DNA of 64,000 nucleotides, from assembly GCF_009828925.2 (NCBI RefSeq), contig NZ_WUTY02000001.1, forward strand, positions 3,626,492 through 3,690,491, written 5' to 3'. Both the position numbers and the translations under genes were made by a program. Shown here in pieces: positions 46,109 to 62,825 of the stretch. Under the pieces are notes generated by a model that was not told the DNA's origin, searched no databases, and saw only the letters and a program-made list of their open reading frames with translations. Position 1 is the first letter of the stretch; each line of letters starts with the position of its first letter. The stretch comes from Methylicorpusculum oleiharenae. GTDB lineage: Bacteria > Pseudomonadota > Gammaproteobacteria > Methylococcales > Methylomonadaceae.

Positions 46109-46156
46109 GTCTTGCTTACAACCTTGATTGCTTTAACGCATATTGTAGTCAAAAAT

Positions 46157-46346: not shown

Positions 46347-46374
46347 TTTATTCATCCTTTTTTGGAGACTCAAC

Positions 46375-47550
46375 TTGAGTACACAAATTACATTTTTTCC
46401 GGTTGGCAACGGCGACATGACACTGATTGAGCTTGACGACGCTAAGCAAACCAAGATTTTGATTGACATAAACATCCGCGAAAGCGCTGACGACGAGGCT
46501 AATGCGGATTATTTCGACGTTGCCAGCGAATTGAGAAGTCGCCTTAAAAACGACTCAAAAGGACGTCCCTACGTTGATGTCTTCCTGCAAACTCATCCAG
46601 ACCAAGACCACTTGAGAGGCTTGTCCAAACATTTCCATCTTGGCGCTGTTGACGACTACAAGGAGCCTAAAGAAGGCGAGCTTGCCAAAATCATCATTCA
46701 AGAAATTTGGTCGTCCCCCATTGTGTGGCGACGGGCTGACCGGCGCACTGGCCACACCTTATGCGAAGATGCTAAAGCGTTTAATACCGAAGCGAAGCGC
46801 CGAGTCAACCTGTACAAAGAAACCAAAAAAATCGGCGAAGCCGGTGATCGCATCCGTATTATCGGCAAAGATGAAAACGGCAAAACCGATGGCCTGGAAG
46901 CAATCTTGACTGAGGCTGATCAAACCTTCACCAAGATTAATGACCAGGAAACGCAAATGGTCGAAGTGTATGTGCTTGGCCCGTTGCAGTCTAAGGATGT
47001 AGAAGACGAAGATCGACTATCCAAGAATCACTCAAGCGTCATCTTGCAATTTAAAATTGCAGCACGGCCTTACGGCCCTAAAACCAACCGTTTTTTGTGT
47101 GGAGGCGACGCGGAAGTCGCAATCTGGCGCGAACTATGGCGCAAACACCAATACACCCCGCACTGTTTACGTTACGACATCTTATTGACACCGCATCATT
47201 GCTCTTGGCATAGCTTGTCAGAAGAAAGTTGGAGCGGCACTAAAAATCCTAAGGTTGATGAAGCCGCAAAATCGGCGTTATCTCAGGCAGAACGCTACGC
47301 CAAGATTGTCGCCAGCAGCAATGCCATCAAAGACGATGATAACGATCCGCCGTGCTGGGGCGCCAAGAAAGAGTACGAAGAGATCGCTGCTACTGTCAGC
47401 GGCGAATTTGTCTGCACAGGCACCAAAGACCAAGAGGTCATTGAAATCCTCTTAACATCCGACGGCCCTAAAGAAAGCCCCAAACGGGCAAGCAACATTA
47501 CCTTAGGCGCCGGCATTGCCTCAAGCGCAAAACCCAAACCACACGGCTGA
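46375..47550 (+). CDS. Metallo-beta-lactamase-fold hydrolase, first gene of an E2-E1-JAB operon
   Basis: 391-aa cytosolic MBL-fold protein. First strand ITFFPVGNGDMTLIELDD, metal motif VFLQTHPDQDHLRGL (T-H-x-D-x-D-H, ~residues 71-85), a later Asp in LCGGDAEVAIW and His pair in LLTPHHCSWHSL. This is the ComEC/Rec2- or RNase-Z-like branch by shape. TTG start at 46375 with GGAG eight bases upstream. It is 4 bp upstream of the E2-E1-JAB gene. The substrate is unknown; hydrolysis of a nucleotide signal or nucleic acid are both conceivable. Confidence 0.78.
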   Translation: MSTQITFFPVGNGDMTLIELDDAKQTKILIDINIRESADDEANADYFDVASELRSRLKNDSKGRPYVDVFLQTHPDQDHLRGLSKHFHLGAVDDYKEPKEGELAKIIIQEIWSSPIVWRRADRRTGHTLCEDAKAFNTEAKRRVNLYKETKKIGEAGDRIRIIGKDENGKTDGLEAILTEADQTFTKINDQETQMVEVYVLGPLQSKDVEDEDRLSKNHSSVILQFKIAARPYGPKTNRFLCGGDAEVAIWRELWRKHQYTPHCLRYDILLTPHHCSWHSLSEESWSGTKNPKVDEAAKSALSQAERYAKIVASSNAIKDDDNDPPCWGAKKEYEEIAATVSGEFVCTGTKDQEVIEILLTSDGPKESPKRASNITLGAGIASSAKPKPHG

Positions 47551-47554
47551 CCGT

Positions 47555-49831
47555 ATGGGTTTACTGTCACAAGAACTGCCAATCGCTGTGAAAGCAGCGA
47601 TTGACCAAATCTCAAACCATCCTTCTATCAACGATATAGTCACCGCCCCCAGTAAGGACAAGCATGGCAATTGGACAATCGAAATTAACATGGACGTTCC
47701 GTTGCCCCGTGATGCAAGGGACAAAGGAATATCGACAACAGGCGTTAAGGCAACGGAGTGGGTAAGAATTGAATTTCCAGCATCTTTTCCTAGCCATGCA
47801 CCTCGGCTTTTTTTACGAGCCGATTTCAACCGAGCCCATCCTCATATCAATCCGGGGAGACCAGGCGAATTGGTTTCGCCTTGCATCTATGAAGGCAGAC
47901 TTGACGACTTATTACATGAGCCGGACTGGATAAATGGCATTATCAACCAACTCGCCGATTGGTTAAGCAAAGCCGCGACTGGCGAGTTGCTTGATTGCTC
48001 TGGTCAGGGGTGGGAGCCCATTCGAAGGGATAGCGTAGATGGGACGATTGTTACCAATATCTCCATCATTCGCGAGCGTATGGCCAACGCCAAGAACCCG
48101 ATAAGTCAATATCTTAGATATGAATATTGGCAGTCCATCGTCGGACATTCGGGTCGGATCATTGATGAAAATACCTTATACGCCAACATCGGTGAAGCCA
48201 TTCGAAAGTTTAGGATAGGAAACAATGAGCGCTCACCGTTTAGAAGCATTTTTTCTCTGGCGATGGTTATTTCAGGCGGCACAAAGAAGACGATTGATGT
48301 TTACCAGCCGGATGATGTCGAGAGCCTTGAACAGCTGCTACTCAGAGCCGAAAGCTATGGCTGTCGATCGGGATTGGAAAACCGCCTGAAGGAGATTACC
48401 GAAAACATTACCCTCCCTTTGATAGAGCAAAAACTGGATTTTGCCGTCTTATTTGCCGTGAAACGCCCCTGCAATCTGATCGGCGAAGACATTGATATTG
48501 AAATTATTCCCTATGGAATTACTTTTACCTCGGACCAAAACCGCCGATTGCAATTGACACGAACATCGGTATTCCCATTAGTGCTGATTCAGAAAGTGAG
48601 CCAACAGTTACTAGCCGAAACGTCGGATCGTAATTTAAATGAAGCAGACCGCCGCAAGGAAATTGCCATGATCGGCTGCGGCAGTCTGGGCTCAAAAATA
48701 GCCTTGCATCTCGCTCGCTCTGGGCATGGTCCGTTTAGGCTTTATGATAAGGATTGTTTTTCGCCGCATAACACCGCGAGACATGCTGTGGCGAATTCTG
48801 CCGCTGCCGAATTCATGCTCCCCAAGGTTTGGTTAACTGAAGACCTGCTAAAGCAAGTTGGCGCCAACGTTACTCAAGTCAATAATTCCCTTGAAGATGT
48901 CATTTCCATTTTGCAAACCAAGCCTGATCTATTTGCAAAATGTAACGGGCTAATTATCGACGCGACAGCTTCCAGTTCAGTCCAAGATGCTCTTTGCATG
49001 GTTCGCCAAAAGCATTTCGGCGCACCACTGCTGCAAGTTGCCCTGTATGGCCGCGGGAAGATCGGGTTTTTTGGCCTTGAAGGAAAAGATCGAAATCCCA
49101 GAGTCGACGATATGGTTGCCCAACTTTACCAACTAGGCTTGGATTCCAGCCCGATTGGAGCCGTGTTATATCAAGCCACTAATTTCGATCGCATAAACAC
49201 CGGCCAAGGGTGCGCATCGTTTTCGATGAAAATGTCTGACGCAAAAATCTCATTGTTCTCAGCTGGCATTTCTGAACGAGCATCACAGCTACTCGACAAC
49301 GGCATTCCAAAGGACGGAGAATTTCTGGTCGGATTGCTTACTGAAGACGGTCTAGGAGTGAATTGGCTGCGTCAACCTACGACCAAGATCGAAGTTCTCC
49401 ACATCGGAGACAAATCAAAATGGGAGCTAAGAATTCCTGCTGCCTTAAAAGATCAGATGCGCATGGAAACTGAGCAGCGCAGACCGCTGGAAACCGGAGG
49501 CGTCTTAATCGGACACATCAATTGGGGGAGACGAACTATCTACGTCACCGGCCTTCTTCCACCTCCTACGGATAGTGAGTTTCGAACTGACGAATTCGTG
49601 CTTGGTATTCAAGGCCTGAAAAAGCAGATCAGTGTCATTGAAAAGACTACGAGCCATACGCTCACCTATTTGGGAACTTGGCACAGCCATCCGAATGGCG
49701 GCGCCGCATCAGGGAAAGACCGAAGCACATTGGCGGAACTGACGAGAGAGCGAGGTAACGTTCCAAGCGTCTGTTTAATTTATCGGCCACATGGACTGTT
49801 AGCAGTACCGGGTCCAGTCACAAATCCATAG
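47555..49831 (+). CDS. E2-E1(ThiF)-JAB triple-fusion ubiquitin-like conjugation/deconjugation protein
   Basis: 758-aa three-domain protein. Residues ~1-145: E2-like (UBC-fold) domain; RIEFPASFPSHAPRLFLR is the E2 proline-rich strand, and ELVSPCIYEG contains the likely catalytic Cys at residue 110 after HPH at 95-97. Residues ~365-620: ThiF/E1 domain; IAMIGCGSLGSKIALHLARS and LYDKDCFSPHNTARH, with a Cys in GQGCASFSMK as candidate E1 cysteine. Residues ~640-755: JAB/JAMM domain; ETGGVLIGH and GTWHSHPNGGAASGKDRST, one residue shorter between His and Ser than the usual motif. The nearest known relatives are Cap2/Cap3 of CBASS and Bil/Bub proteins. No ubiquitin-like gene or cyclase is adjacent. 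I use the ATG at 47555. Confidence 0.82.
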   Translation: MGLLSQELPIAVKAAIDQISNHPSINDIVTAPSKDKHGNWTIEINMDVPLPRDARDKGISTTGVKATEWVRIEFPASFPSHAPRLFLRADFNRAHPHINPGRPGELVSPCIYEGRLDDLLHEPDWINGIINQLADWLSKAATGELLDCSGQGWEPIRRDSVDGTIVTNISIIRERMANAKNPISQYLRYEYWQSIVGHSGRIIDENTLYANIGEAIRKFRIGNNERSPFRSIFSLAMVISGGTKKTIDVYQPDDVESLEQLLLRAESYGCRSGLENRLKEITENITLPLIEQKLDFAVLFAVKRPCNLIGEDIDIEIIPYGITFTSDQNRRLQLTRTSVFPLVLIQKVSQQLLAETSDRNLNEADRRKEIAMIGCGSLGSKIALHLARSGHGPFRLYDKDCFSPHNTARHAVANSAAAEFMLPKVWLTEDLLKQVGANVTQVNNSLEDVISILQTKPDLFAKCNGLIIDATASSSVQDALCMVRQKHFGAPLLQVALYGRGKIGFFGLEGKDRNPRVDDMVAQLYQLGLDSSPIGAVLYQATNFDRINTGQGCASFSMKMSDAKISLFSAGISERASQLLDNGIPKDGEFLVGLLTEDGLGVNWLRQPTTKIEVLHIGDKSKWELRIPAALKDQMRMETEQRRPLETGGVLIGHINWGRRTIYVTGLLPPPTDSEFRTDEFVLGIQGLKKQISVIEKTTSHTLTYLGTWHSHPNGGAASGKDRSTLAELTRERGNVPSVCLIYRPHGLLAVPGPVTNP

Positions 49832-49842
49832 GAAAATATCGA

Positions 49843-50496
49843 ATGCCATCGTTAAAATCGCTCAACATGCCAAGTATCGTGGCCACTACATTGATTAATG
49901 CAGGGCTGTTGTGTTTCTTTTCGCAGGGGGTAGAAATAGATGCTCAAGTCCTTACGTCGTTTCTAAACAACTGGAAACTTTCCGGGTTAGCTGCAGCAGT
50001 ATCAACAGCGACAATCGCAGCGTTGAGCCTGATGCTTCCAAGACAGGTTAAAGATGCACTGGTTTATTTACGCTGGCCCTACGCGGCGCCCGGCCACCGT
50101 GCATTTTCAATCTATGCTCAACGCGATATCCGCGTGGATTATGACCGACTGAAAGCAGAAATCCCTGAATTGCAGGATCAATGGGCTTTAACGCCAGAAA
50201 TTGAAAACAAGGTTTGGTACCGATTATTCAAAACTCACGAAAAAACGGAGGCTGTTTCCCATGCGCATCGCATGTGGTTAATGTTCAGGGATCTGACATC
50301 ACTAGCATATCTATTCTTCGGAGCATTTATCATTATTGGTTTATATTTCAAACCTGGGATTAATTGGGGACTTTACCTAACAATCTTTACTCTGGAATTA
50401 TTGGTTTTCTGGAGAGCCGCATGGAATTCAGGCGAGCAGCTTATTTGTAATGTATTGGCTGCAGTTACATCTACAAACAAATCCGATGAAAGTTAA
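49843..50496 (+). CDS. Four-transmembrane protein, putative effector of the E2-E1-JAB operon
   Basis: 217-aa membrane protein. TM1 about residues 10-28 (IVATTLINAGLLCFF), TM2 ~44-62 (LSGLAAAVSTATIAALSL), a ~80-residue soluble section, TM3 ~150-170 (LTSLAYLFFGAFIIIGLYF), TM4 ~175-195 (LYLTIFTLELLVFWRAA). AGGA lies at the stop codon of the preceding gene, so it is co-translated. Its position as last gene and its helices resemble small membrane effectors of abortive-infection systems; this is inference. Confidence 0.65.
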   Translation: MPSLKSLNMPSIVATTLINAGLLCFFSQGVEIDAQVLTSFLNNWKLSGLAAAVSTATIAALSLMLPRQVKDALVYLRWPYAAPGHRAFSIYAQRDIRVDYDRLKAEIPELQDQWALTPEIENKVWYRLFKTHEKTEAVSHAHRMWLMFRDLTSLAYLFFGAFIIIGLYFKPGINWGLYLTIFTLELLVFWRAAWNSGEQLICNVLAAVTSTNKSDES

Positions 50497-50759
50497 CAGA
50501 TAAAACTGCCGACCCAGGTCAAAAGCAACCTGTTCAACCCCATAAATGATTAAATTCAATGAAATTCGCTGGGAGATGGTTACTTTTATCCGCTGAATGT
50601 TGGCCATGTCATAAGTAGTTTATTTGGTGAAAATCTAGCTTAATCTATTTAACTGATATAGACTTTGGGCATAGAAAGATAATTCCGTTCTCTATCGTAT
50701 CTGGCAAACATTAGAGGGCGATGTGACCTTGAAAGGTCAATCTATGATGGAGAATGCCA

Positions 50760-53700
50760 ATGACTCAAAACGCCCAACAAGGCGGAGCGTCCGTTCATGC
50801 GCGCGGACAAATTCCGTCGACCGATTTGGCTTCGTTGATCCAATATTTGACGAAAGCCTATCCTCCGGATTTCGAATCCGATAAGCCTGTTATTACATGG
50901 CCTGTTTTAAGCTTCGATTCTGAAAAACGCCGACTTGGCATCAATACCTACGGGATACTGCGCCGGTTGCTTATCCAGAAAGAATTACTTACACATTTTC
51001 GCCATACCCCGAGCACAGGATTTCTGCACGACCTAGCCAGCCCTCCAAAAGGTTTTACTACCAAGTTGGGAGGGCGGCTTTTCAACGACGATATTGCTGG
51101 ACTTTCTCAAGCCCTGACCAAGCTAAAACAGCTCATCAAAAATGAAATTGAAAGTCTAAATTGTCCACTGGATAGTTTATTGGTAGAAGAGCCGGCTTCG
51201 GCCCTGGAAGTATTGTCAAAGCTCGCCAATTGTAAGAGCTTATTCAGTACGTTTCCGGCCCAGATGATTGCCATGGAATTTGCCCAGAACGATCGTTCCA
51301 AGGATGCTCGTGAAAAAGATATTGCGCGCGTTTTTTCGGCTCAAGAAGAAGTTCAAGCGGAAGATTGGCTGGAAAGAATGGCGGATAGTATTTCAAAAGC
51401 CCAATCACACAGGGATGATGAATTCGATTCCGTTCAGCGCAGGAAATTGGTTGAAACCTTACGCCAGGACTTTGATAAAGAGGACAGTCAAGTCACGCGA
51501 TTCTTGAATTTTCTTGAAGATGAGGCGTTGTCACGAGTGCGTTTGCGTGTCAGTTTCGCCATTATGGACAGCCTCGCGGCACAAAAATCGAAATCAGAAA
51601 AAGAAACCGATCGACGTTTCATTGATTATATTCGACGCGTCAACCTAATTTTTCAACATTACGGAGCGCCCGAATCCAGCCACTCCTTGCATCTTGATTT
51701 AACGCGCGATTTTGGCTTAGGCGCCGAATTTTCGATTTCCCAGGAACTAGTCAAGGCTATGTTCTATAACTGCCTACCGGTTTGGGCTGAATGGAATACG
51801 CAACTGTTCGAAACGCGCAGCGTTGAGCCTGAATCCAAAGGGGTTTTGGTTGTTCGCGAAGTCAGTTACCGCTTTCGGGTGAATGGGAAAGATCCTCTTA
51901 ATGCGATGGAACAGGCCTTTAATGCCCGTCTTAATCGGTTACGCGACACATTACTGAATGAGTCAGACAACGAAGTACCGCAATTTATGCTGCGCAGGAG
52001 TATCAGCGAAGTGGCGTTTTTGTGGCTGGTGTTAAATCCAGCCATTCACAATTCCGAATTGCTTACGGAAGCCGCCCGGCTATCTACTCGCCTAAAAGAA
52101 CAAGGAAAATTGGGCTTGTCCGATTTGTTAGATGACTTAAATTCATGGAGCGATGCAGTTAAGGATCTCAGTAATACCTTAATTACCATCCTACGCACCC
52201 AGTCGCGCAATGTTATCGCACACGCTCAGCGATCAGTGGACGATTTATACCTAGTGGTTCAAAAAGGTGTTGTGGACTGGTCGTCAATAGACCGCTCGAA
52301 AGGCCGCGTTCGTGACCCACTCATCAAACCGGGATCTGGCCAATCCGAAAACATCGAATGGCTCAACCATATTCAAATCGCGCATAATCCGCATGATGTC
52401 GTCAACCCCTTGTTTTCCATTCTCGTCCGGACAATATTAAATGAACGAACGCTCACGGTTAGAGATAGTGAGAGTCTTAGGATTCAAATCCATCGAGAAC
52501 TGCCTGAATGTTTCCTAAACATCGTTTGGAGACCGATTAGGGTTGACGAAAACCAAACGCCTATTAAACGTGAACCCAGGGTCGCGGTGAATCAATCCTG
52601 GCTCATGTCATCAGGCATTGACATCTGGTATGACCCTGAGCGTTTGAAATATCGTAACCATCCAAAATTCCTTGAGGAAGATCAACGCCAATACCGCGCA
52701 GCAACAGCGACAGCCATGGCCGTATTGATTTACGTCGTGCTGCAGGTCATCAGCGAAAAACTGGTTTCTCAAGCGGAAAAGCACTTCCCAGCTTTGATGG
52801 TACGTTTCCAACAGCAAGGGAAGAATGCCGCCAAGGACGAAGGCGATCACTGGGTTTACGCCATTTCACAAGCTGTCGAATCCGCCTTGATGCGCGACGT
52901 GCCGGTGCGTATGCAAGGTTTAGTCGTCGATAAAAGTAAAGTCGACGATAGAAACAACCCCGCTTATTACAGGGTAAGTGGGGCGGCTTATGCCCTGTCA
53001 GCGGCGTTCCCGATAATCCTTGCAACAGATTGTTCCCCAACTGTCAATAAGGTCGCCGCGATCGTTTACACGACTCGACCATGCGATTATCACCCCGGGG
53101 TCCACGATACCAATGGCTTCATCTTTCAAGCAAAGACTTATCTGGCCGAATCGATCAGCCAACTTTCAACCGGTTACCGGATGGCCTTTGATCGCATGCA
53201 GACCCATGCCGTGGAAACCCAAAAAGAGTTCAAAAGTCCGAAGCTCATCGTCGAAGAAGTCTCAAGGCTACAAGCACTGGGTTACGAGCACATTATTCTA
53301 ATCTCAAACCATTTCGGTAATCGTCGGATCAACCGCGCCGCGCAGCGCCATTCTCCCCATACGCAAACCGTCTTTTTAGATGAAGTGGCCACCAAATTTC
53401 CGCATGTCAGTCTTTACATGTTGCGGCGAGACGTGTTCCCGGCTACTCGCCTGCATACCCGAACAAAAACCGAATCCGCATTCGAAGCCGTACAAATTTC
53501 CGACCATAATGAATTTGCCCTGAATCCTGATAAAGCGGTTTTAAAAAAACTTATCCCCATTTATACCTTTGCGACCTTGGCCATCGTGGGTAACGACGAT
53601 GCAGCGCGACCGCAATCGGGGTTTTGCACTTATTTTTGGGATGAAGATTACCAGGTCAAAAACAGCGAATGGCGAGAGCAAGTTCGTTCAAACCTCATGA

Positions 53701-53948
53701 ATTCGAATTTAGGTATTCGCTCAAGTTTATTAAACGTTCTCAGGGGGCTGCATTTTCTTGAAGCCGAAAAACAACCGGACGGCGGCGTTTTTAAACCTGT
53801 TTTAGATCCTTTCGGTTGGGTAAAGCCATCCACCCATCAAGCTGCCGGCGAAATCGAAGTGCTGCCATCCAGCCGGCGGAAAGGCAATGTCTTGCTTTCA
53901 TTGCCGGCCTTGCTATCCCATGTAACAGAAATCTTACACAGTCGGTAA
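50760..53948 (+). CDS. 1062-aa unrecognised protein paired with a helicase
   Basis: Large soluble protein, no domain recognised. Mostly helical to residue ~700; the C-terminal third shows alternating strand/helix (PKLIVEEVSRLQALGYEHII, HTQTVFLDEVATKFPHVSLY) that looks Rossmann-like. No P-loop and no obvious nuclease motif. Start at ATG 50760, with GGAG seven bases upstream; an in-frame ATG is six bases earlier. A 263-bp gap separates it from the 4TM gene, so it probably has its own promoter. The stop is 5 bp before the helicase start. I considered a PIWI-like protein but cannot support it. Confidence 0.7.
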   Translation: MTQNAQQGGASVHARGQIPSTDLASLIQYLTKAYPPDFESDKPVITWPVLSFDSEKRRLGINTYGILRRLLIQKELLTHFRHTPSTGFLHDLASPPKGFTTKLGGRLFNDDIAGLSQALTKLKQLIKNEIESLNCPLDSLLVEEPASALEVLSKLANCKSLFSTFPAQMIAMEFAQNDRSKDAREKDIARVFSAQEEVQAEDWLERMADSISKAQSHRDDEFDSVQRRKLVETLRQDFDKEDSQVTRFLNFLEDEALSRVRLRVSFAIMDSLAAQKSKSEKETDRRFIDYIRRVNLIFQHYGAPESSHSLHLDLTRDFGLGAEFSISQELVKAMFYNCLPVWAEWNTQLFETRSVEPESKGVLVVREVSYRFRVNGKDPLNAMEQAFNARLNRLRDTLLNESDNEVPQFMLRRSISEVAFLWLVLNPAIHNSELLTEAARLSTRLKEQGKLGLSDLLDDLNSWSDAVKDLSNTLITILRTQSRNVIAHAQRSVDDLYLVVQKGVVDWSSIDRSKGRVRDPLIKPGSGQSENIEWLNHIQIAHNPHDVVNPLFSILVRTILNERTLTVRDSESLRIQIHRELPECFLNIVWRPIRVDENQTPIKREPRVAVNQSWLMSSGIDIWYDPERLKYRNHPKFLEEDQRQYRAATATAMAVLIYVVLQVISEKLVSQAEKHFPALMVRFQQQGKNAAKDEGDHWVYAISQAVESALMRDVPVRMQGLVVDKSKVDDRNNPAYYRVSGAAYALSAAFPIILATDCSPTVNKVAAIVYTTRPCDYHPGVHDTNGFIFQAKTYLAESISQLSTGYRMAFDRMQTHAVETQKEFKSPKLIVEEVSRLQALGYEHIILISNHFGNRRINRAAQRHSPHTQTVFLDEVATKFPHVSLYMLRRDVFPATRLHTRTKTESAFEAVQISDHNEFALNPDKAVLKKLIPIYTFATLAIVGNDDAARPQSGFCTYFWDEDYQVKNSEWREQVRSNLMNSNLGIRSSLLNVLRGLHFLEAEKQPDGGVFKPVLDPFGWVKPSTHQAAGEIEVLPSSRRKGNVLLSLPALLSHVTEILHSR

Positions 53949-53953
53949 TCGTT

Positions 53954-56900
53954 GTGCTTGAGCCAAACCAACGTTATTCGCTGTGGGGTCAGGCCTTCGA
54001 AATCGCGGTAAAGAGAGGTGTTCTAACGGCCTTGCTAGCCAGTGGCTTGAATGGTTTGGATAAAATCGATTTGAAAGCTTGGAAAGCATTGGATACGGCC
54101 GATGTGTACGAAGCTTTGGCCAAGGTTCTTCAAGAAGTGGATCGAAATCTGCAAGACAGAACACGAGAGACCGCGCGCCACTTGTTCGAGTTGGGCATGG
54201 GGTTGGGTCAAACTGCCATGCGCGAATATCTACGCCGATTAAAGTACGATCCCGAAGACTACTGCATCAAAGCCCTTTGGTGTCCGTTACAGCTGCCTCG
54301 ATTAACGATTGAGGATAATTTCGAAGCGGAAACAACGGCGGCATTGCAGGACTTTACCATTGCCTTCGCACAAAATCGGCGGGTCGAGTCGATTTTGGCA
54401 GATAAAGGTTTTCCGGTTAGAGCGGATTTCTTACTCTGGTTGGATGGGAACGATGAGTTAATCGATAGGGAGTTCTTATGCTTGGAGTTTTCGCTAAACG
54501 GTTTACCTGAAACAGCCGATTATCGAAAACCCGAGGCCCACTTGGAAGAACTTCGCCGATTTGCTTGGTTCATGGATACTCGCAGCGTTTTTTCCCGTGT
54601 CTGCGCCGAAGTGTCCACTGAGGAATTCGTGCTGTCCCCGGATATCAAGCAATACTTACCGGCCTTTACCGGGCGCGACAAACCCTTATATAAACTCTGT
54701 CAAGCCGCTTCCTACGTTTACACTTTCATGCGATGGTTGGCAAGCAAGGGCTTCGATGACAAACCCTGCAAGGCGCGAGCCCTATCGATCACGCAAAATG
54801 GCTTTGAAAGTCTCAGTGCACGATTTTTTACCCAACCCACTCTCGATCCCCGTACGACTTTAATTGAAAATCTCGGCCGCGCCTATCGCAATAGCGAAAA
54901 GTCACCGGAAAGTGATGATGAATCATTGAACGATTATATTCTCCACGCTTTCAATACGATCCGCAAAGCCTTACCTCAGGTCATTAGCAAACAGTTTGTT
55001 GAGTTGCGTGAAGTACAGGAATTGGGAAAAAGCCTGGCTTTTGATTTCACAGAAGATGTTGAAGGTTTTTTAAATCCTATGGAGACCCTACCATGGCATG
55101 ACACCTTGTCGTGGGTAAATTCCGATGAGGCCATCGCCGACTTCCTCAAGGGCGATCCTAAAGTAGCCATAGCTGAAACCTTAGCGGAACAGGTAGCAGA
55201 AAATCAATCTGTGCCTTTGCGGGATTTACATGCAGCCGCTGTGGTTGCCGGCATGAAGGCGTCAACACTAGGAAAATTGACCGTTTTAGGGCTGGAGGGT
55301 AATCCCGGTATCGGCAAGACAACCGCAGTTGTCAGTTACCTAAAGAGTTCCGACGCTGGTTTCTTGTTTCTGTATGTTAGTCCTCGGGTGATTATTAATG
55401 ACGATGTCACCGAAAATCTGGCCAGGGATAAAAACACCCAAAATCCTACCGGTATTTTGACGGTTACCACTAACTCGAAATTGATCGGATCCGCCAATGC
55501 TTGGTATGAGGAGCGAGCAAAACAAGGTGAAGTTCCTCAAAGACGTGTAGATAGTGCCGTGGTTGCCGACGGCGTTAAAGATCTAAATCTGCCAGACGGC
55601 AGTACATTGATCCTTTTCCCAGAACAAAAAGAAGAACTCGAACTGACGCATATCGGCGCAAGCCATCGTAAGCGGGTTGAAACCGAACGCCAAGATCGCA
55701 TGGAAGATGTCAAACGTCCGGGCGTATTGAAAGTATTATCCATAAGCACCCGCAAATTGCTGGCCGAAAATAGTAACATCAACAAAGTCGTTCTGACAGC
55801 CGCGATTCAGGGATACCGAGAACTGGGTGGAGACAAAAGCACATTGTCAGCATTGGAAGGCTTGTTCAAAAATCCGGCGAATAGCCAAGCCGGCAAACAA
55901 GAGCGACGCCTGTTTGTCCAGCGTATTCCTACCATCGTGGTGATGGTCGACGAACTAACCGGCGACGGTGCGGGCGCGCCATTTATTCATGCCGTCACCC
56001 GATGGTTGGATCAACAATTCATCCAGCCATTCGAAGGCTCTCCATTATTCCGAGTTATCTTGATCGTATCGGACGCCTCGTTGGGCAACGAAATCGTCCT
56101 TGACCGTTATCTGAATAGTGGTTCGCGCACGCCGGACAAAGTATTGGTATCCCAAAGCGCAGGAAAACGTCCTTTTCGCCTGGCCGCCACCCCGGTTCGA
56201 ATTGGTGGTAAACGAATGCCGGTTCTCCATATCATGACCAACAGTTACCCGGCTGCAAAATTGACCGTCGACTATCGGGTGCGGCTCGACTTGATCAAAC
56301 CGGGCGAATTAGCTGACGGCAGAACGCAAACCGTTCGCCAAGCTATCGCGGAACAACAAGGTGAGGCGATTATCGGTAATGTCATCCAGGAAATTAGTCG
56401 AGCACTTAATATGGGGGGCGACCAAATCATCTTTTTCGCACAAGACAAAGCCTTTTTGAGATCGGTTCAAACCGCATTAGTCAGCTCTGATGACAGCGAA
56501 GCGCTGTTAGACGAATCACAAGTGGCCATATTGGATTCCAGTGTCACGGCCGCCAGACGTAAAGCGCTGATAACAGAAGACCGGCGGGATGCCGTGAAAG
56601 TTTTCCTCATGACCTCAAGTGGCGCCCGTGGCGTTTCTTTCCCTAAAACCGACTGGATTATCGCCTTGATACCCCGTTTCGGCATTGAAGCTGCGCTGAT
56701 GGAGGTCGCTCAATTGATTTACCGGGGGCGAGGGCAACGTTATACAGCTGATGACGGTGCGCGCAAAGACGACGGCGACTGGAAAAGCCGCCGACTGGTC
56801 ATGTTACTCCAGGATTTTCTGCCTCAGGATGATACGCCGGAACCGCGTCAGTGGCTCCGCCAAGTCAGCGATTTACTGACCTATTTAGTCATGCTGAGAT

Positions 56901-57823
56901 CAACGATATACACCCGCATTATCGGAGATGCGGGGTTAGATAGGCAGAATCTGGCCATGGTGCCTGTTGGTGGCATTGGCAGCACGGAAATGTTGTCATT
57001 GATGAGCACTCACATTAGGGAATTTTTGCAGGAAGCCGACGTTTTTCTTAGAGATCATGCCGCGGACCAACAACGACGAGGTCAGGTCGTGAGTGCCCAG
57101 CAAAATATTCATCGCTTATTCTCAAAATTTTCCTTGGAAGGGACCGCCCAATTCAAGGATTTCAAAAGCGTCGCCAAGTTGGAGGATATTCAGGCCTTTT
57201 CGCGGCGGGCCAGTGCCGATAACGCGCCGCTGTTAATCTCCCCAAACGACGATCGTGATTGCTTGTTACCCGATCATCTTTATTGTATAGGCCCATTCTG
57301 GTTAGAGCATTGGGATAAAGTGGATAAGCTGGAACGGCTCAACGTCGAAGGCTGGTCGACCAATGTCGACCGCTACATTTCTAATCTGTTCGGTGAGCTG
57401 AAATATATTTTTGTCGATGAAACACTACCTTTTAAATTGCGGAAGCCAGCCGAAGAGCTCTACCGGATTTTGGCGCGAGAGAAAAAAGAAGCTACCCGTG
57501 AGTTTTCGACCGTTAAGACCTTGAAATCGCCATCGACTTGGTTGGTCGTGCCGTTGGATTATGCGCGATTTTGGAAAAAAGACGCTACAGGCCGACTACC
57601 ATCCTTGGGAAGCGACGAGGCAAGTTGGCGAGATTCTTTAGGTGCTTGCATTTCCACTTCCTCAGCAGAAATCCTACCTGTCATTCCACGCTATGCGGAT
57701 ATACCCTATGCAGCGGTAATTGGCGAAAAAGACCCAGCCAGATTGGATTTGATATTCGATGATCGATACCTTGCTGCATCGAATGAGCTCAATTTACTGA
57801 ACACAATTCTTTTGGCTGAATAA
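53954..57823 (+). CDS. 1289-aa SF2-type helicase with nuclease-like N-terminal domain
   Basis: Start at GTG 53954, five bases after the upstream stop, probably by coupling. Walker A LGLEGNPGIGKTTAVVSYL at about residue 445; Walker B IVVMVDELTGDGAG at about 660; motif V SSGARGVSFPKTDWIIALIP; motif VI QLIYRGRGQRY at about 922. N-terminal ~400 residues include VRADFLLWLDG and FLCLEFSLN, spaced like a PD-(D/E)XK site but with Ser where Lys is expected. C-terminal ~330 residues unrecognised. It forms a pair with the 1062-aa protein upstream and lies 20 bp before a 123-aa gene. Confidence 0.75.
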   Translation: MLEPNQRYSLWGQAFEIAVKRGVLTALLASGLNGLDKIDLKAWKALDTADVYEALAKVLQEVDRNLQDRTRETARHLFELGMGLGQTAMREYLRRLKYDPEDYCIKALWCPLQLPRLTIEDNFEAETTAALQDFTIAFAQNRRVESILADKGFPVRADFLLWLDGNDELIDREFLCLEFSLNGLPETADYRKPEAHLEELRRFAWFMDTRSVFSRVCAEVSTEEFVLSPDIKQYLPAFTGRDKPLYKLCQAASYVYTFMRWLASKGFDDKPCKARALSITQNGFESLSARFFTQPTLDPRTTLIENLGRAYRNSEKSPESDDESLNDYILHAFNTIRKALPQVISKQFVELREVQELGKSLAFDFTEDVEGFLNPMETLPWHDTLSWVNSDEAIADFLKGDPKVAIAETLAEQVAENQSVPLRDLHAAAVVAGMKASTLGKLTVLGLEGNPGIGKTTAVVSYLKSSDAGFLFLYVSPRVIINDDVTENLARDKNTQNPTGILTVTTNSKLIGSANAWYEERAKQGEVPQRRVDSAVVADGVKDLNLPDGSTLILFPEQKEELELTHIGASHRKRVETERQDRMEDVKRPGVLKVLSISTRKLLAENSNINKVVLTAAIQGYRELGGDKSTLSALEGLFKNPANSQAGKQERRLFVQRIPTIVVMVDELTGDGAGAPFIHAVTRWLDQQFIQPFEGSPLFRVILIVSDASLGNEIVLDRYLNSGSRTPDKVLVSQSAGKRPFRLAATPVRIGGKRMPVLHIMTNSYPAAKLTVDYRVRLDLIKPGELADGRTQTVRQAIAEQQGEAIIGNVIQEISRALNMGGDQIIFFAQDKAFLRSVQTALVSSDDSEALLDESQVAILDSSVTAARRKALITEDRRDAVKVFLMTSSGARGVSFPKTDWIIALIPRFGIEAALMEVAQLIYRGRGQRYTADDGARKDDGDWKSRRLVMLLQDFLPQDDTPEPRQWLRQVSDLLTYLVMLRSTIYTRIIGDAGLDRQNLAMVPVGGIGSTEMLSLMSTHIREFLQEADVFLRDHAADQQRRGQVVSAQQNIHRLFSKFSLEGTAQFKDFKSVAKLEDIQAFSRRASADNAPLLISPNDDRDCLLPDHLYCIGPFWLEHWDKVDKLERLNVEGWSTNVDRYISNLFGELKYIFVDETLPFKLRKPAEELYRILAREKKEATREFSTVKTLKSPSTWLVVPLDYARFWKKDATGRLPSLGSDEASWRDSLGACISTSSAEILPVIPRYADIPYAAVIGEKDPARLDLIFDDRYLAASNELNLLNTILLAE

Positions 57824-57843
57824 ATGCCAATTGATTTTTGAAA

Positions 57844-58215
57844 ATGAAAAAAGAACAATACATTATCACTGAATTGCTCGATGGGGGAATAGGGCAAACT
57901 AAACCTGTTATATGGCAGCATGCCATGACACACGATGATAAGAAAGTAACTTTCTGGGGAAGGCTTGAATCAATGAGGAATATAAAAAGCATTGAAAATC
58001 AAGAAATTCCTTTTATTGCAGAAATTCTAGGTGCCGAAGAAAATATCGATTTCAAACGCAAGTACGGCACAGATATTTCCGTCAATGAGGGATGTTACGT
58101 GACGGTCCATCCTCTTTCTGCTCAGATGATTAGATTAATGATGTCTGGCAGCCCTGATAAATTGATTGAACAAATCTCAATAATGCAAAAAGAGTTCAGC
58201 GAAAAAAGAGACTAG
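57844..58215 (+). CDS. 123-aa protein after the helicase, unrecognised
   Basis: Small mixed alpha/beta protein (KEQYIITELLDGGIGQTKPV start; MIRLMMSGSPDKLIEQISIM near the end). Start at ATG 57844; weak ribosome-binding site. It follows the helicase by 20 bp and precedes the TM0106-type gene by 145 bp, so it is probably co-transcribed with the helicase. No domain recognised. Confidence 0.6.
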   Translation: MKKEQYIITELLDGGIGQTKPVIWQHAMTHDDKKVTFWGRLESMRNIKSIENQEIPFIAEILGAEENIDFKRKYGTDISVNEGCYVTVHPLSAQMIRLMMSGSPDKLIEQISIMQKEFSEKRD

Positions 58216-58360
58216 ATAACGCAAAAAACATTTTTACCCAAAGTCTTACCATGTCGAATAACCATACATTGCTAATAGTGTTTTCAAAAAAGATAGGTTT
58301 GCTTGCATTTTCTAAGATGTCAGGAAAATAGTTAATTTTGGACTGATTTTCCTGAACATA

Positions 58361-61300
58361 ATGTATAAAAATAATACTAATCAATTAATATTTTCTCCAT
58401 CCGATCTGGTTCTTGCCATGCGTTCTCCCTTCGCATCCTGGATGGAACGTTTGGCAATTGAATCTCCTGCCCTGATCTCCGGTATCGAGAAAGATCACGA
58501 TCCAATGATGGCCCTTCTTGCCGCCAAGGGTAATACCCATGAAGCGAACTTTCTCCAATCCCTGCAGGACAAGCACGGCGCCGAGGTTATTGCGATCGTC
58601 AAAAGCAAATCGCACCACGACAAGGCGATTGAAACCCTGCAATACATGCAAGCCGGGTATCCTTTCATCTACCAAGCCTATTTGTCGCGGGACGGCTTCG
58701 CCGGCAGCGCCGATTTCCTGGTCAAGCTCGAAGGAAAATCCGGTTTGGGCGATTACCATTACAAAGCCTGGGATACCAAACTCTCTCAAACCACTCGCCC
58801 CTATTTCCTGATCCAGCTTTGTTGCTACAGCTGGATGCTGGAATCGATCCAAGGCATCATCCCAAACGAGGCCGCCATTGTTCTGGGTGATTTAACTGAA
58901 GATCGTTTTCGTATCGCCCGCTATTACAGCTTTTTCGACCGCTTGAAACGCGACTTTCTCAATGCACAATACGCATTCACCGCAGATTTTGCCTGCATGC
59001 CTGATCCAGCCTATTACAGTGATCATGGCGCTTGGTCGTCTTTCGCAAAGGACTGGATCGAGAGAACAGACAGCCTGGCGCAAATTGCCTGTATCCGGAA
59101 AAGCCATATCCGTAAACTCCGTGCGGCCGGCATTGAAACCATGACTGATTTTGCCGGTAACGACATCGAATTGCTCAAAGGAATCTCAACCGCGACACTG
59201 GCAAAACTGAAAGCCCAAGCCGAAATTCAACACGCATCTCGCGGACTTGAAAAACCGCTATTCAAGATTCTTCAAAACGACAATGGTAAGGGTCTGTCCT
59301 CGTTGCCGCCGGCGTCTGCTCTCGACGTGTTTTTCGATATTGAGGGACATCCGTTGTATGACGGCGGACTCGAATACCTTTGGGGTTGCAGTTACCGCTG
59401 TCCCGATGCCGCACAAGGTAAGTTTTATGCATTTAGAGATTGGTGGGCACATACCCCTGACCAAGAAAAATCCGCATTCGAAGGGTTTATTGATTGGGTC
59501 TATGATCGATGGAAACGCGACAACACCCTGCATGTCTACCACTATGCCAATTACGAAGTGGCCGCCATACGCAAACTCTCTACCCGGTATGAAACCCGAA
59601 TCAAAGAGGTTGCCGAAATGTTGGCCAACGGCGTGTTCGTCGATCTGTATAAGATTGTCTTGAATGGCGTCCTCATTGGCGAGCCCCGTTACAGTATCAA
59701 AAACGTCGAACATCTGTTCAGAAGCAAACGGACCACGCAAGTCGCCAATGGCGGTGATTCAGTCATTGCTTATGAGCTATGGCGTGAACAAGGTGGCGTT
59801 ACCCGCTGGAGTGACAACGTCAACGGCTATTGGTCTTGGCTTGCCGATCCAGCCGCTTTTGATTGGGCGCAATGGCCCGAATTGAAAGACATTCGCGACT
59901 ACAACATCGACGACTGTGAAAGCACGCTGGAGCTGGTGAATTGGCTGCGTGAACAACAATCCATCGCTGGCATCGCTTATGCCCCCAAATCGGATGCCGC
60001 AACACCTGACCAGCAAAAAACCGATCGACAAATACAAGCGACTGAGAAAAAGCAGGTGCTCCGCGATTGGCAGCAACGTCTGTTCGAACGCTTCGAAGCG
60101 AGTGAATCGCTTAAAAACGATCCCAACGCTCAATTGGTTATGGATCTGCTAGGGTTTCATAATCGGGAACGCAAACCCAAAATCTGGGCTTATTTCGAGC
60201 GTCTTGAAAAGCCTGAAGAGGAATTGTTCGACGATGATACCTGCGTTCACGATGTGGTCATCACCGGTCAAATGCCATCCGATGATGGCGTTCTTTTCCG
60301 TTACAAATTCGACATCAAGCAACCGGTCAGAAAAGACAAGTTTGCCACCGGGACGATCAGAGGCACAGACATTCGAGTGAAAGGCATTCGTTTTCCGGAA
60401 TCCGAAACGGACGCACTTATTGAATTCATCGCTGATCCCGACCAAATATCAAAGCTTGGCACCGATCGCATGACATTGTTCGCCGACGAGCCATTTATCA
60501 GTACCGAGACTTTGGAAACCCGGCTATGCGAAGTGGCGGAAGCATTGTTCGACGGTCGACTGCCAGGCGCAATTCAATCGGTACTGAACCGAGAAAATCC
60601 AGTTTTCAAAACGGACTCTGAGCCCGATGGCAATTACTTGCCAATCACTCGTTCAAGATTCCCCGAAGACGATTTGTATCTGGAAGCCATCATTTCAGCG
60701 GTCGAGGCCATGAATAACAGCACGATGTGTATTCAAGGGCCTCCAGGCGCTGGGAAGACCTTCACCGCAAAACACATCATTACCTCGCTTGTCCGTAAAG
60801 GAAACAGGGTTGGAGTGATGAGTAATAGCCATGCTGCGATCCTGAATCTCTTGGATACCCTCCACGGACCCACCGAGCACGCAAGAATTGCCAAAGTCGG
60901 CGGTTTTGGTTCCAAACAGGATGCGTTCAAGGAGAAATATTCTGAAAAAGATTTCCCGAATTACGTGTATCGGACTTCCATGAATTTCACCAAACGCGAT
61001 CCTTATCATTCTTTTGCGGTGGTCGGTGCAACTGCTTATGCCTTTGCCTCGAATACGTCCTTTGAATCACCACTGGATTTCTTGTTTGTGGATGAGGCCA
61101 GCCAGGTTGCCTTGGCAAATCTTGTGGCCGTGGCCGGATGTGCAAGAAACATCGTCCTGATGGGCGATCAAATGCAGTTGGAGCAACCGATCCAGGGAAG
61201 TCATCCTGGGAGCTCAGGATTATCAGTATTGGATTACATGCTTGGTGGGCATGGCGTCATTCCTGAAGATATGGGAATCTTCCTGGAAAGGACATACCGC

Positions 61301-61885
61301 ATGCACCCCGCTGTTTGTCATCCACTATCCGAGGTGGTCTATGAGGGCAAGCTCAAGGCAGCCAAACACAACGATCGTCAACTGGTTTCGGTACCGGACT
61401 CGAAGCTGATCAAGCAGACCCATGGGGTCATGGTGGTCAACGTTGATCACGATGGCAACCGACAAAGCAGCGAAGAGGAAGTCGATGTCATCCAACGAAT
61501 CATCGACGACCTCAAAATGGGGCGGTGTACCGCTAAAAATGGCGAAGCTCGCTCAATCGCCGATGAGGATATCCTGGTTGTGTCGCCTTACAACATGCAG
61601 GTGAATTTGCTCAAAGATCGCTTAGGCGACAAAATCGCCATTGGCACCATTGATAAATTTCAGGGCCAGGAAGCGCCTGTGGTGATTATTTCCATGGCCG
61701 TCAGCGACGTAGAGGAAAGTAGTCGAGGCCTCGATTTCCTCTTCGACATCAACCGTCTAAATGTCGCTGTTTCCCGTGCCCAGGCCTTGGCTATTATCGT
61801 TGCCAATCCTGGCTTGGAACGCTGCCGGGTTTCATCGCTTGAGCAAATGGAAAAGGCGAGCTTTTATTCTCGGCTGGTATCTTGA
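58361..61885 (+). CDS. TM0106-type RecB-like nuclease, DEDD exonuclease and SF1 helicase fusion
   Basis: 1174-aa protein with three catalytic modules. Residues ~1-250: RecB-type nuclease (DLVLAMRSPFASWMERLA, GFAGSADFLVKL, YKAWDTKLSQ, LIQLCCYSWML). Residues ~315-540: RNase H-like DEDD exonuclease (DVFFDIEGHPLYDGGLEYLW, HYANYEVAAIRK, YNIDDCESTLELVNWL). Residues ~780-1174: SF1B helicase (Walker A IQGPPGAGKTFTAKH, FLFVDEASQVALANL, GDQMQLEQPIQGSHP, GTIDKFQGQEAPVVI, LNVAVSRAQAL). This order is that of TM0106-family putative nucleases, thought to act in DNA repair or defence. Its stop overlaps the next start (TGATG). Confidence 0.88.
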   Translation: MYKNNTNQLIFSPSDLVLAMRSPFASWMERLAIESPALISGIEKDHDPMMALLAAKGNTHEANFLQSLQDKHGAEVIAIVKSKSHHDKAIETLQYMQAGYPFIYQAYLSRDGFAGSADFLVKLEGKSGLGDYHYKAWDTKLSQTTRPYFLIQLCCYSWMLESIQGIIPNEAAIVLGDLTEDRFRIARYYSFFDRLKRDFLNAQYAFTADFACMPDPAYYSDHGAWSSFAKDWIERTDSLAQIACIRKSHIRKLRAAGIETMTDFAGNDIELLKGISTATLAKLKAQAEIQHASRGLEKPLFKILQNDNGKGLSSLPPASALDVFFDIEGHPLYDGGLEYLWGCSYRCPDAAQGKFYAFRDWWAHTPDQEKSAFEGFIDWVYDRWKRDNTLHVYHYANYEVAAIRKLSTRYETRIKEVAEMLANGVFVDLYKIVLNGVLIGEPRYSIKNVEHLFRSKRTTQVANGGDSVIAYELWREQGGVTRWSDNVNGYWSWLADPAAFDWAQWPELKDIRDYNIDDCESTLELVNWLREQQSIAGIAYAPKSDAATPDQQKTDRQIQATEKKQVLRDWQQRLFERFEASESLKNDPNAQLVMDLLGFHNRERKPKIWAYFERLEKPEEELFDDDTCVHDVVITGQMPSDDGVLFRYKFDIKQPVRKDKFATGTIRGTDIRVKGIRFPESETDALIEFIADPDQISKLGTDRMTLFADEPFISTETLETRLCEVAEALFDGRLPGAIQSVLNRENPVFKTDSEPDGNYLPITRSRFPEDDLYLEAIISAVEAMNNSTMCIQGPPGAGKTFTAKHIITSLVRKGNRVGVMSNSHAAILNLLDTLHGPTEHARIAKVGGFGSKQDAFKEKYSEKDFPNYVYRTSMNFTKRDPYHSFAVVGATAYAFASNTSFESPLDFLFVDEASQVALANLVAVAGCARNIVLMGDQMQLEQPIQGSHPGSSGLSVLDYMLGGHGVIPEDMGIFLERTYRMHPAVCHPLSEVVYEGKLKAAKHNDRQLVSVPDSKLIKQTHGVMVVNVDHDGNRQSSEEEVDVIQRIIDDLKMGRCTAKNGEARSIADEDILVVSPYNMQVNLLKDRLGDKIAIGTIDKFQGQEAPVVIISMAVSDVEESSRGLDFLFDINRLNVAVSRAQALAIIVANPGLERCRVSSLEQMEKASFYSRLVS

Positions 61886-62109
61886 TGAGTTCTGTTTCAA
61901 TTTGCGTCGCTTGCAAGCGCAACTGGTACTCTGCGCCGGGCGGGTGTTTGGGCAAGCCATACCCGTACAGCAAATGTCTGCATTTTCAAGATGATATACC
62001 TGCCGTCGTAGAAAAACGGGTAGGCTGTGACGGAACTAAAAGTCCGCGCTGGATTCGCAGTGAGGTGCCGGCGGATTGTCCGAAGTTTTCAGGGAGCCAG
62101 AAGCAATGA
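61885..62109 (+). CDS. 74-aa Cys-rich protein, unrecognised
   Basis: Six cysteines, including ICVACKRN, PGGCLGKPYPYSKCLHF, GCDGTKSPRW and ADCPKF, suggest metal binding. ATG at 61885 overlaps the upstream stop (TGATG), and its own stop overlaps the ung start (ATGA), so it is tied translationally to both neighbours. Function unknown; a role with the nuclease or UDG is inference. Confidence 0.6.
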   Translation: MSSVSICVACKRNWYSAPGGCLGKPYPYSKCLHFQDDIPAVVEKRVGCDGTKSPRWIRSEVPADCPKFSGSQKQ

Positions 62110-62825
62110 TCAAAATCCCATCACTTTGGGCAAATCTTTTATTGACCGCTGGCAAACCTGAGATTCTTGATGCTATTGCTGAAATTGAGAGCATTCTTGA
62201 TGGTCTTTCAAAACAAGCTGTGATTTTGCCCACTGCCGATCACCGTTATAGGGCTCTTTCAATCGATCCGGAAAAGGTAAGATGCGTGATCGTTGGCCAA
62301 GATCCTTACCACGGCATTGCAGAAATATGCCTTGAATCCGGAGAAACACACTCAGTACCGGAGGCAATGGGCCTGAGCTTTTCGGTACCCAAGGGAATAA
62401 AAATCCCGCCTTCTTTACGCAATATTTTCAAGGAACTGAATCAAGATGTTGGCTATCCGGCGCCGGATCACGGCGATTTAACCGCTTGGGCCGATAGAGG
62501 GGTTTTGCTTTTAAATCGCATGCTCAGCGTCCAGAAAGATAAACCCGGTTCTCATAGCAAACTTGGCTGGCAACAGGTAACAGAAGCATTGGTATCAGCT
62601 CTGTCTCAACAGCATTCGGGCATTGTGTTCATTCTTTGGGGAAACCATGCCAAGTCGGTTCGACCGTTCATCGCTAATAATGAGCATACAATCATCGAAT
62701 CGAGCCATCCCTCGCCGATCGGCGGCTCATGCAATAAAGGCTTTTTTGGTTCGAGGCCGTTTAGCCGTGCAAATGAGGCTTTAGCAAACCTTGGAAAACA
62801 AACAATCGATTGGAGTCTATCGTGA
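62106..62825 (+). CDS. ung: Family 1 uracil-DNA glycosylase
   Basis: 239-aa UDG that excises uracil from DNA. Catalytic water-activating Asp in VIVGQDPYHGIAE; minor-groove loop and uracil-binding AMGLSFSVP, PPSLRNIFKEL, RGVLLLNRMLSVQ; Asn and beta-strand IVFILWGNHAKSV; His in the intercalation loop ESSHPSPI. All family-1 motifs are present. It overlaps the Cys-rich gene before it (ATGA) and DUF805 after it (GTGA). An ung in a defence/mobile region rather than in a core locus is unusual. Confidence 0.94.
   Translation: MIKIPSLWANLLLTAGKPEILDAIAEIESILDGLSKQAVILPTADHRYRALSIDPEKVRCVIVGQDPYHGIAEICLESGETHSVPEAMGLSFSVPKGIKIPPSLRNIFKELNQDVGYPAPDHGDLTAWADRGVLLLNRMLSVQKDKPGSHSKLGWQQVTEALVSALSQQHSGIVFILWGNHAKSVRPFIANNEHTIIESSHPSPIGGSCNKGFFGSRPFSRANEALANLGKQTIDWSLS

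What the first reader, a model, noticed from the sequence alone, without database searches (positions are those of the whole stretch)
50760..58215. Unrecognised 1062-aa protein with a 1289-aa helicase: candidate new two- or three-gene system
Very large coupled genes (5-bp gap) followed by a 123-aa gene. The helicase has P-loop, DE and QxxYRGRG motifs and an N-terminal ADFL...LEFS segment like a variant PD-(D/E)XK site. I cannot match the partner to Druantia, DISARM, Hachiman, Zorya or pPIWI-RE. The setting, among restriction, Ub-like and nuclease genes, points to defence.
Basis: partly seen in the sequence, partly recalled or inferred. Interest (0 to 1): 0.7.

Follow-up and report, generated by a model that had tools for sequence, protein, structure and literature searches.

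The report
Mobile helicase pair, perhaps Argonaute-guided
Two adjacent, jointly inherited bacterial genes that move between plasmids and chromosomes encode an unnamed large protein, perhaps a distant relative of the guide-carrying Argonaute proteins, and a helicase with a nuclease-like front end; together they probably attack invading DNA.

Summary
Window 50760-53948 (1062 aa, P0001) and 53954-57823 (1289 aa, P0002) lie 5 bp apart. Homologous pairs in the same order occur in methanotrophs, on Cupriavidus, Acinetobacter and Acetobacter plasmids and on cyanobacterial conjugative plasmids. Two comparisons of cyanobacterial plasmids show a shared block that ends at the two genes, so the unit is two genes. 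The 123-aa gene is optional cargo. No Pfam, PADLOC, NCBIfam or PHROGs model matches P0001. P0002 has a conserved SF2 helicase core and an N-terminal segment with invariant E16, D158, [DE]178, K243, K247 and Q250, like a PD-(D/E)XK nuclease with serine in place of the lysine.

Best reading (0.4): an Argonaute-like protein (MID-like motif with invariant QG and a basic residue, then an RNase-H-like strand order) that steers a helicase-nuclease onto invading DNA. That is the logic of ApsAB and DdmDE, but with gene order and nuclease position reversed. Profile comparisons with pAgo and pPIWI-RE were not significant and not stable in register, the control pair was weak too, and both structure predictions failed. 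The fold is unproven. Extra find: methanotroph copies carry a conserved 105-nt leader, found nowhere else, with a consensus three-way-junction fold over the ribosome site.

The parts
50655..50759 (+). conserved 5' leader; consensus fold a three-way junction that pairs CUCC (CUUU in the window) with the GGAG ribosome-binding site
50760..53948 (+). P0001, 1062 aa, large partner; MID-like motif around Y700, Q719-G720 and R738, then an RNase-H-like (PIWI-like?) order of elements at about 764-960
   Evidence: no database family
53954..57823 (+). P0002, 1289 aa: N-terminal PD-(D/E)XK-like segment, SF2 helicase, C-terminal region of unknown fold
53987..54715 (+). P0002 N-terminal nuclease-like motifs: G12, E16, D158, E178-F-S, K243, K247, Q250, Y254
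   Evidence: 10 of 10 rows, D/E exchange at 178; serine two residues after 178 in 10 of 10
55298..56734 (+). P0002 SF2 helicase core from GNPGIGKT (449-456) to QLIYRGRG (920-927)
57844..58215 (+). P0003, 123 aa, optional cargo gene of some methanotroph copies; not part of the core

Best explanation
A mobile two-gene module against invading DNA. P0001 acts as an Argonaute-like sensor that holds a guide, or recognises a nucleic-acid structure, through a MID-like pocket (QG plus a basic residue). It loads P0002 onto the target. P0002 then moves along DNA with its SF2 helicase motor and cuts it with its N-terminal PD-(D/E)XK-like domain, using K243 or K247 in place of the usual lysine. The result would be destruction of plasmid or phage DNA. 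Shown here: the pair, its joint inheritance, the two-gene boundary, the helicase motifs and the invariant nuclease-like residues. Inferred: the Argonaute-like fold, the guide, the cutting, the defence role and the target.
For: Pairs in the same order in methanotrophs and in 10 of the 11 plasmid records that encode the helicase; the eleventh, Stanieria, has only the C-terminal half of the helicase near a transposase. Distances of the two proteins correlate at r = 0.996 over 28 pairs of 8 rows, which are not independent. Cyanobacterial plasmids share 5502-12241 (L014/L016) and 5475-12243 (L014/L017), the genes being 5534-12240. SF2 helicase: Helicase_C matched by 10 of 10 rows. MID-like motif: QG in 12 of 12 rows, K or R at 738 in 12 of 12, Y700 in 8 of 12, K at 704 in 4 of 12, three of these four being near-copies; compare Y[X]3K[X]nQG[X]nK published for ApsB (PMC11096173, passages). 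The best hhalign segment of P0001 690-1062 against a pPIWI-RE profile covers 73 columns in the register expected for the RNase-H core; the nine other segments tested give 11 to 37 columns. Published systems pair an Argonaute-like protein with a helicase-nuclease. Defence setting of the window copy.
Against: No significant match of P0001 to any Argonaute, PIWI or pPIWI-RE family: hmmscan, PDB profile searches, hhalign scores inside the range of shuffled or unrelated segments. In one search the pPIWI-RE/pAgo control beat 40 of 40 shuffles while P0001 was reached or beaten by 21 and 23 of 40. The register is not stable: without its MID part P0001 aligns elsewhere on pPIWI-RE, against the longer pAgo profile its best segment is out of register, and an unrelated helicase segment reaches 67 columns against pAgo. 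K at 704 is missing in 8 of 12 rows. The nuclease-like site lacks the canonical K in 10 of 10 rows, and a PDB profile search with it found no nuclease. Both structure models are unusable (mean pLDDT 32.7 and 32.3). There are no functional data.
Confidence: 0.4

Rival explanations
1. A helicase-driven DNA defence pair whose large partner is not Argonaute-like but another kind of DNA-binding or scaffolding protein. P0002 senses or processes foreign DNA and P0001 regulates it.
For: P0001 matches no family and no PIWI profile above controls; P0002 motifs are conserved; defence setting of the window copy.
Against: QG and the basic residue sit just before an RNase-H-like order of strands, and one profile alignment lies in the PIWI register over 73 columns.
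Confidence: 0.33
2. A divergent member of the ApsAB or DdmDE family by descent, not just by logic.
For: Same pairing of an Argonaute-like candidate with a helicase-nuclease candidate; ApsB also has a conserved QG (passages).
Against: Gene order reversed. No conserved D...[DE]xK in the part of P0002 behind the helicase, whereas ApsA and DdmD have a C-terminal PD-(D/E)XK. Motif VI is QLIYRGRG and not the QAVGRVER given for ApsA. No direct comparison with ApsAB or DdmDE sequences was possible.
Confidence: 0.1
3. Not defence: a maintenance, replication or repair module of mobile elements.
For: All 10 non-methanotroph pairs seen are on plasmids, because only plasmid records were searched with names; 6 of them are typed conjugative.
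Against: Rare and patchy, also present on a 3.6-Mb-plus contig in a defence cluster, and shared as a bare two-gene block between plasmids with different flanks.
Confidence: 0.15

Closest known systems
ApsAB anti-plasmid system (E. coli ST38; PMC11096173, abstract, passages and data section seen)
   Same: Two genes, an Argonaute-like protein with a conserved QG MID-like motif and a helicase-nuclease.
   Different: ApsA comes first and carries its PD-(D/E)XK at the C-terminus; here the large partner comes first and the nuclease-like motifs are N-terminal. The K of Y[X]3K is missing in 8 of 12 rows.
DdmDE plasmid defence (review PMC12409362, passages seen)
   Same: Proposed logic: a guided Argonaute recruits a helicase-nuclease that degrades plasmid DNA.
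   Different: DdmD is helicase then C-terminal nuclease; P0002 is nuclease-like then helicase. PDB profile searches with A1, A2 and A6 listed no Argonaute and no helicase-nuclease; that DdmD and DdmE structures are in that collection is my recollection.
pPIWI-RE three-gene system (PMC3702460, passages seen)
   Same: Large PIWI protein with a helicase, often on mobile elements; longest profile alignment in the expected register (not significant).
   Different: No separate REase gene, no DinG-type cysteine cluster, no PF13032 match.

Membership tests
SF2 helicase | Walker A/B, Helicase_C, motif VI | tested here: met
   PF00271 in 10 of 10 rows; motif positions invariant
PD-(D/E)XK nuclease | D ... 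(D/E)-x-K | tested here: not met
   E16, D158 and D/E178 in 10 of 10, but S instead of K at +2 in 10 of 10; K243, K247, Q250 invariant
ApsAB | MID-like Y[X]3K[X]nQG[X]nK in the Argonaute-like protein | tested here: inconclusive
   QG 12/12, K or R at 738 12/12, Y 8/12, K at 704 4/12
ApsAB | C-terminal PD-(D/E)XK after the helicase | tested here: not met
   no A2 column with D/E in 10 of 10 rows is followed by K at +2 in all rows
ApsAB | helicase-nuclease gene first | tested here: not met
   large partner first in the pairs read
ApsAB | sequence homology to ApsA/ApsB | not testable with these tools
   no ApsAB sequence obtained
DdmDE | helicase followed by C-terminal PD-(D/E)XK in one protein | tested here: not met
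DdmDE | partner is a DNA-guided, catalytically inactive pAgo | not testable with these tools
   needs biochemistry; fold not settled
pPIWI-RE system | RNaseH_pPIWI_RE domain (PF13032) | tested here: not met
   not among the Pfam matches at E<=1 of any of 12 rows; none in the own genome
pPIWI-RE system | separate REase gene in a three-gene operon | tested here: not met
   two-gene block
pPIWI-RE system | DinG helicase with Fe-S cysteine cluster | tested here: not met
   only one column of A2 has Cys in at least 8 of 10 rows, C110
prokaryotic Argonaute | Piwi family match (PF02171) or profile match to pAgo | tested here: inconclusive
   no Pfam match; hhalign not above controls, control pair itself weak
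Druantia, DISARM, Hachiman, Zorya and other PADLOC systems | match of the protein to the system's models | tested here: not met
   P0001 family 0 of 12 rows at E<=1; P0002 family at E<=0.1 only mad8 (3 of 10 rows, best 4.9e-5) and Csf4 (1 of 10)

The most novel reading that the evidence does not exclude
A third, independently built kind of Argonaute-guided helicase-nuclease: the Argonaute-like gene comes first, the nuclease sits in front of the helicase and uses a displaced lysine, and in methanotrophs the operon is preceded by a dedicated three-way-junction RNA that is bound by its own Argonaute-like product as a regulator or scaffold.
Probability: 0.1. Interest if true: 0.85.

Novelty: new variant of a known kind. 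Interest (0 to 1): 0.6.

Why it matters
If the reading is right, Argonaute-like sensors have been paired with helicase-nucleases in yet another arrangement, which would show that this pairing is a recurrent solution against plasmids and phages. If P0001 is not Argonaute-like, the pair is a helicase module with a partner of unknown fold. Either way it is a compact, mobile, testable two-gene unit that no PADLOC-DB 2.0.0 or NCBIfam 20.0 model used here recognises.

Tried and rejected
AlphaFold2 of P0001 (4-row alignment) and of P0002 1-1198 (3-row alignment) gave mean pLDDT 32.7 and 32.3. I ran no fold searches on such models.

PDB sequence searches with P0001, P0002, A1, A5, A6 and A7 listed only hits that I take for chance; A2 listed generic RNA-helicase and clamp-loader matches and designed proteins, best E 6e-4.

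Profile comparison of P0001 with pAgo and pPIWI-RE: not significant, register not stable. The pPIWI-RE alignment contained a wrong part of L035; it was left out and replaced. By eye I first judged the RNase-H-like site inactive; the column count does not settle this, because D776, E797, D891 and D915 are acidic in 10 or 11 of 12 rows.

Search for ApsA through its published motif VI in viral contigs: 32 stretches; one lies in a 513-aa helicase-like frame (L074), none in a helicase of ApsA size.

Three-gene reading rejected: P0003 was found in 4 of 101 relatives, one of them (G057) without P0001, and in no plasmid record. In G040 (L007), which has P0001, P0003 was not found, but the stretch I hold ends inside the helicase. 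Its PDB profile search gave nothing.

No relative of P0002 in phage records; none in viral contigs with A2, P0002, the L014 helicase or the L011 partner as query. Rfam: nothing at gathering scores in 46000-62500.

Rows dropped before counts: the distance correlation uses 8 rows; L016 and L017 (near-copies of L014) were dropped, and L007 and L010 are not in A2 (L007 is cut inside the helicase; the L010 helicase is split in two frames). L016 and L017 were also left out of the profile segments. Searches use those segment files.

The novel case went from 0.12 to 0.1.
Full report
WHAT IS THERE. The window lies in a 5.85-Mb genome (G000 C1:3626492-3690491) whose P0001 relatives in genome contigs are a Methylomicrobium MAG (99%) and two Methylomonas strains. 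The reading frames are as reported: P0001 at 50760-53948 (1062 aa), P0002 at 53954-57823 (1289 aa, GTG start), P0003 at 57844-58215 (123 aa). P0001 and P0002 are 5 bp apart. The gap is also 5 bp in L003, L007, L011 and L012; the genes overlap by 4 bp in L002, L014, L016 and L017; the gap is 103 bp in L013 (L009 and L010 not measured).

FAMILY SEARCHES. P0001 has no match at E<=1 in Pfam, PADLOC, NCBIfam or PHROGs. Its 12 aligned relatives give scattered weak Pfam hits (best E 0.04, no family in more than 3 rows), none in PADLOC and one weak NCBIfam hit. P0002 has Helicase_C (E 8e-6), found in 10 of 10 rows. In PADLOC its rows match only mad8 (3 of 10) and Csf4 (1 of 10) at E<=0.1.

DISTRIBUTION. 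Relatives of P0001: 3 loci in genome contigs; full-length in 4 of 101 related genomes, plus a 45-residue remnant with a stop in a fifth; 4 of 72,556 plasmid records with P0001 as query and 6 with the cyanobacterial version. Relatives of P0002: 11 of 72,556 plasmid records. In 10 of these 11 the large partner lies directly upstream; Stanieria has only the C-terminal half of the helicase, near a transposase. BLAST does not link the cyanobacterial partner to P0001; a profile of the 8 proteobacterial rows does (L014 E 2e-17, L013 E 3e-6 in a set of six sequences; hhalign 98%, 979 columns, reversed control 0.3%), and QG is aligned with QG. In Acetobacter the helicase is split in two frames. In broad samples only the own genome has a full helicase match (369 genomes of the class; 398 of the phylum; the samples overlap); the other hits there cover about 35 to 120 model positions. 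No match in 50,697 phage records for P0002 or in viral contigs. The family looks rare, patchy and mobile.

UNIT. Two cyanobacterial plasmid stretches share a block from 32 bp before the first gene to 1 bp after the second (L014/L016, 97.6%); L014/L017 share from 59 bp before to 3 bp after (98.0%). L016 and L017 share a longer stretch with each other and are not independent. The window and L002 share 50671-57832, the two genes plus a 90-bp leader; the window and L003 share 50670-58094, which includes most of P0003. P0003 is found in 4 of 101 related genomes, three of them with P0001, and in no plasmid record. So the core has two genes and P0003 is cargo. Distances of the two partners correlate at r = 0.996 (28 pairs of 8 rows, not independent).

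ANATOMY OF P0002. Residues 449-927 hold an SF2 helicase: GNPGIGKT, VMVDE, SDAS, QDK, TSSGARGVSFP, QLIYRGRG; the tabulated positions are invariant in 10 of 10 rows, except that the first S of SDAS is A in six. The N-terminal third holds E16, D158, [DE]178, K243, K247, Q250, S253 and Y254, in 10 of 10 rows (D/E exchange at 178). That spacing resembles RecB/Cas4-type PD-(D/E)XK nucleases (a resemblance recalled, not a search result). The residue two after 178 is serine in 10 of 10 rows, so the canonical lysine is missing; K243 or K247 could replace it (inference). A PDB profile search with this part found no nuclease. No column of A2 with an acid in all rows is followed by lysine at +2 in all rows, so a C-terminal nuclease as in ApsA and DdmD is not seen.

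ANATOMY OF P0001. Q719-G720 are invariant (12 of 12), residue 738 is K or R in 12 of 12, residue 700 is Y in 8 of 12 and residue 704 is K in 4 of 12. For ApsB a motif Y[X]3K[X]nQG[X]nK is published and likened by its authors to the MID pocket of long-B pAgos (PMC11096173, passages). Behind it the alignment reads, by eye, as three strands, helix, strand, helix, strand, the order of an RNase H fold. The best hhalign segment of P0001 690-1062 against a pPIWI-RE profile of 11 sequences covers 73 columns in that helix-strand-helix-strand part; the nine other segments of the two proteins give 11 to 37 columns. Against this: the score (15.3) is inside the control range (11.1 to 18.3); the shorter segment 735-1062 aligns elsewhere; against pAgo the same segment is out of register, and a helicase segment reaches 67 columns there. 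Earlier, with shallower profiles, the best pAgo segment did fall in the expected register, but with scores no better than shuffles. In one search the control pair pPIWI-RE/pAgo beat 40 of 40 shuffles, while P0001 was reached or beaten by 21 and 23 of 40. In one search that control pair reached only P = 0.2, over 182 columns, so the test has little power. Acidic positions D776, E797, D891 and D915 are kept in 10 or 11 of 12 rows and E1003 in 12 of 12; whether a catalytic site exists is open. Both structure predictions failed.

MECHANISM. The simplest model joining these facts is a two-part machine: P0001 recognises foreign DNA, perhaps with a guide, and P0002 is loaded, translocates and cuts. 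The published parallels are DdmDE, where a pAgo with DNA guides recruits the helicase-nuclease DdmD (review PMC12409362, passages), and ApsAB, where helicase and MID-motif mutations abolish plasmid destabilisation and a nuclease mutation has a partial effect (PMC11096173, passages). Shown here: pair, unit, motifs. Inferred: guide, recruitment, cutting, target. The plasmid location of the distant copies would fit rivalry between plasmids as well as host defence; only plasmid records were searched for them by name.

MEMBERSHIP. Of the defining features of ApsAB, DdmDE and the pPIWI-RE system that could be tested, none was met; the MID-like motif is inconclusive (see table). The pair is therefore not filed in any of them. 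What it works like and what it belongs to are different questions; for the first, the Argonaute-helicase-nuclease logic is the best guess at 0.4.

LEADER. In the four methanotroph copies a leader of about 105 nt is conserved (0.67-0.80 pairwise identity, as high as or higher than coding DNA in 5 of 6 pairs, against 0.46-0.50 further upstream). RNAalifold gives a three-way junction with 23 pairs, one helix pairing with the GGAG ribosome site. 97.8% of cells are paired, but only one pair changes on both sides and 120 of 500 shuffles reach the same score. Single-sequence z-scores run from -0.9 to -3.0; the best single folds of L002 and L003 cover the ribosome site as in the consensus, that of L007 does not, and that of the window differs from the consensus. 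A covariance model built from these copies finds one match each in exactly the 4 of 101 relatives that carry full-length P0001, and none in the distant copies. Function unknown; translational control is my guess.

LITERATURE. Papers seen: PMC3702460 (passages), PMC11096173 (abstract, passages, data section), PMC12409362 (passages). I found no paper describing this pair; the searches were for related systems, since the pair has no name, and within an open-access library only.

Noticed in passing
window 50655-50759: Conserved 5' leader before P0001, consensus three-way junction over the ribosome-binding site, one match each and only in the relatives with full-length P0001.
   Followed up: partly
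window 46375-49831 (+): 6A-MBL anti-phage system: MBL-fold protein (NF058524) and E2-E1-JAB protein cap2_3 (NF058523) upstream of the pair; a 217-aa gene without a family match at a useful E-value follows at 49843-50496.
   Followed up: no
window 36204-46108 (-): Type I restriction-modification cluster (HsdR, HsdM, two HsdS-like genes) with a Fic-like and a DUF559 protein.
   Followed up: no
window 58361-61885 (+): 1174-aa TM0106-type RecB-like nuclease joined to an SF1 helicase; PADLOC MkoA (Mokosh) matches it at E 5e-45, best stretch in the helicase part; followed by uracil-DNA glycosylase at 62076-62825.
   Followed up: no
window 32950-35184 (-): PRTRC-system ParB protein, which may mean that the cluster sits in an integrated plasmid-like element.
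   Followed up: no
L009 / NZ_AP025172.1, L084 / AP018241.1: Cupriavidus sp. P-10 plasmid pMTS1 carries both this pair and a pPIWI-RE homologue; Microchaete NIES-3275 and Tolypothrix PCC 7712 carry the two on different plasmids. The two systems coexist.
   Followed up: no
L012 19548-24704; L011 19109-21115: In Acinetobacter sp. PK01 the pair is followed by a DUF4011 protein; in A. piscicola by an HNH endonuclease and a WYL protein.
   Followed up: no
L015 9034-10932: Stanieria plasmid keeps only the C-terminal half of the helicase near a transposase, a broken copy.
   Followed up: no
L008 (G023): 45-residue remnant of the P0001 family with a stop codon in a genome of the same family.
   Followed up: no
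L032 1408-1701 (G057): Homologue of the 123-aa protein (32% over 63 residues) in a genome without P0001; FWG and MRNI are kept in all three sequences aligned.
   Followed up: partly
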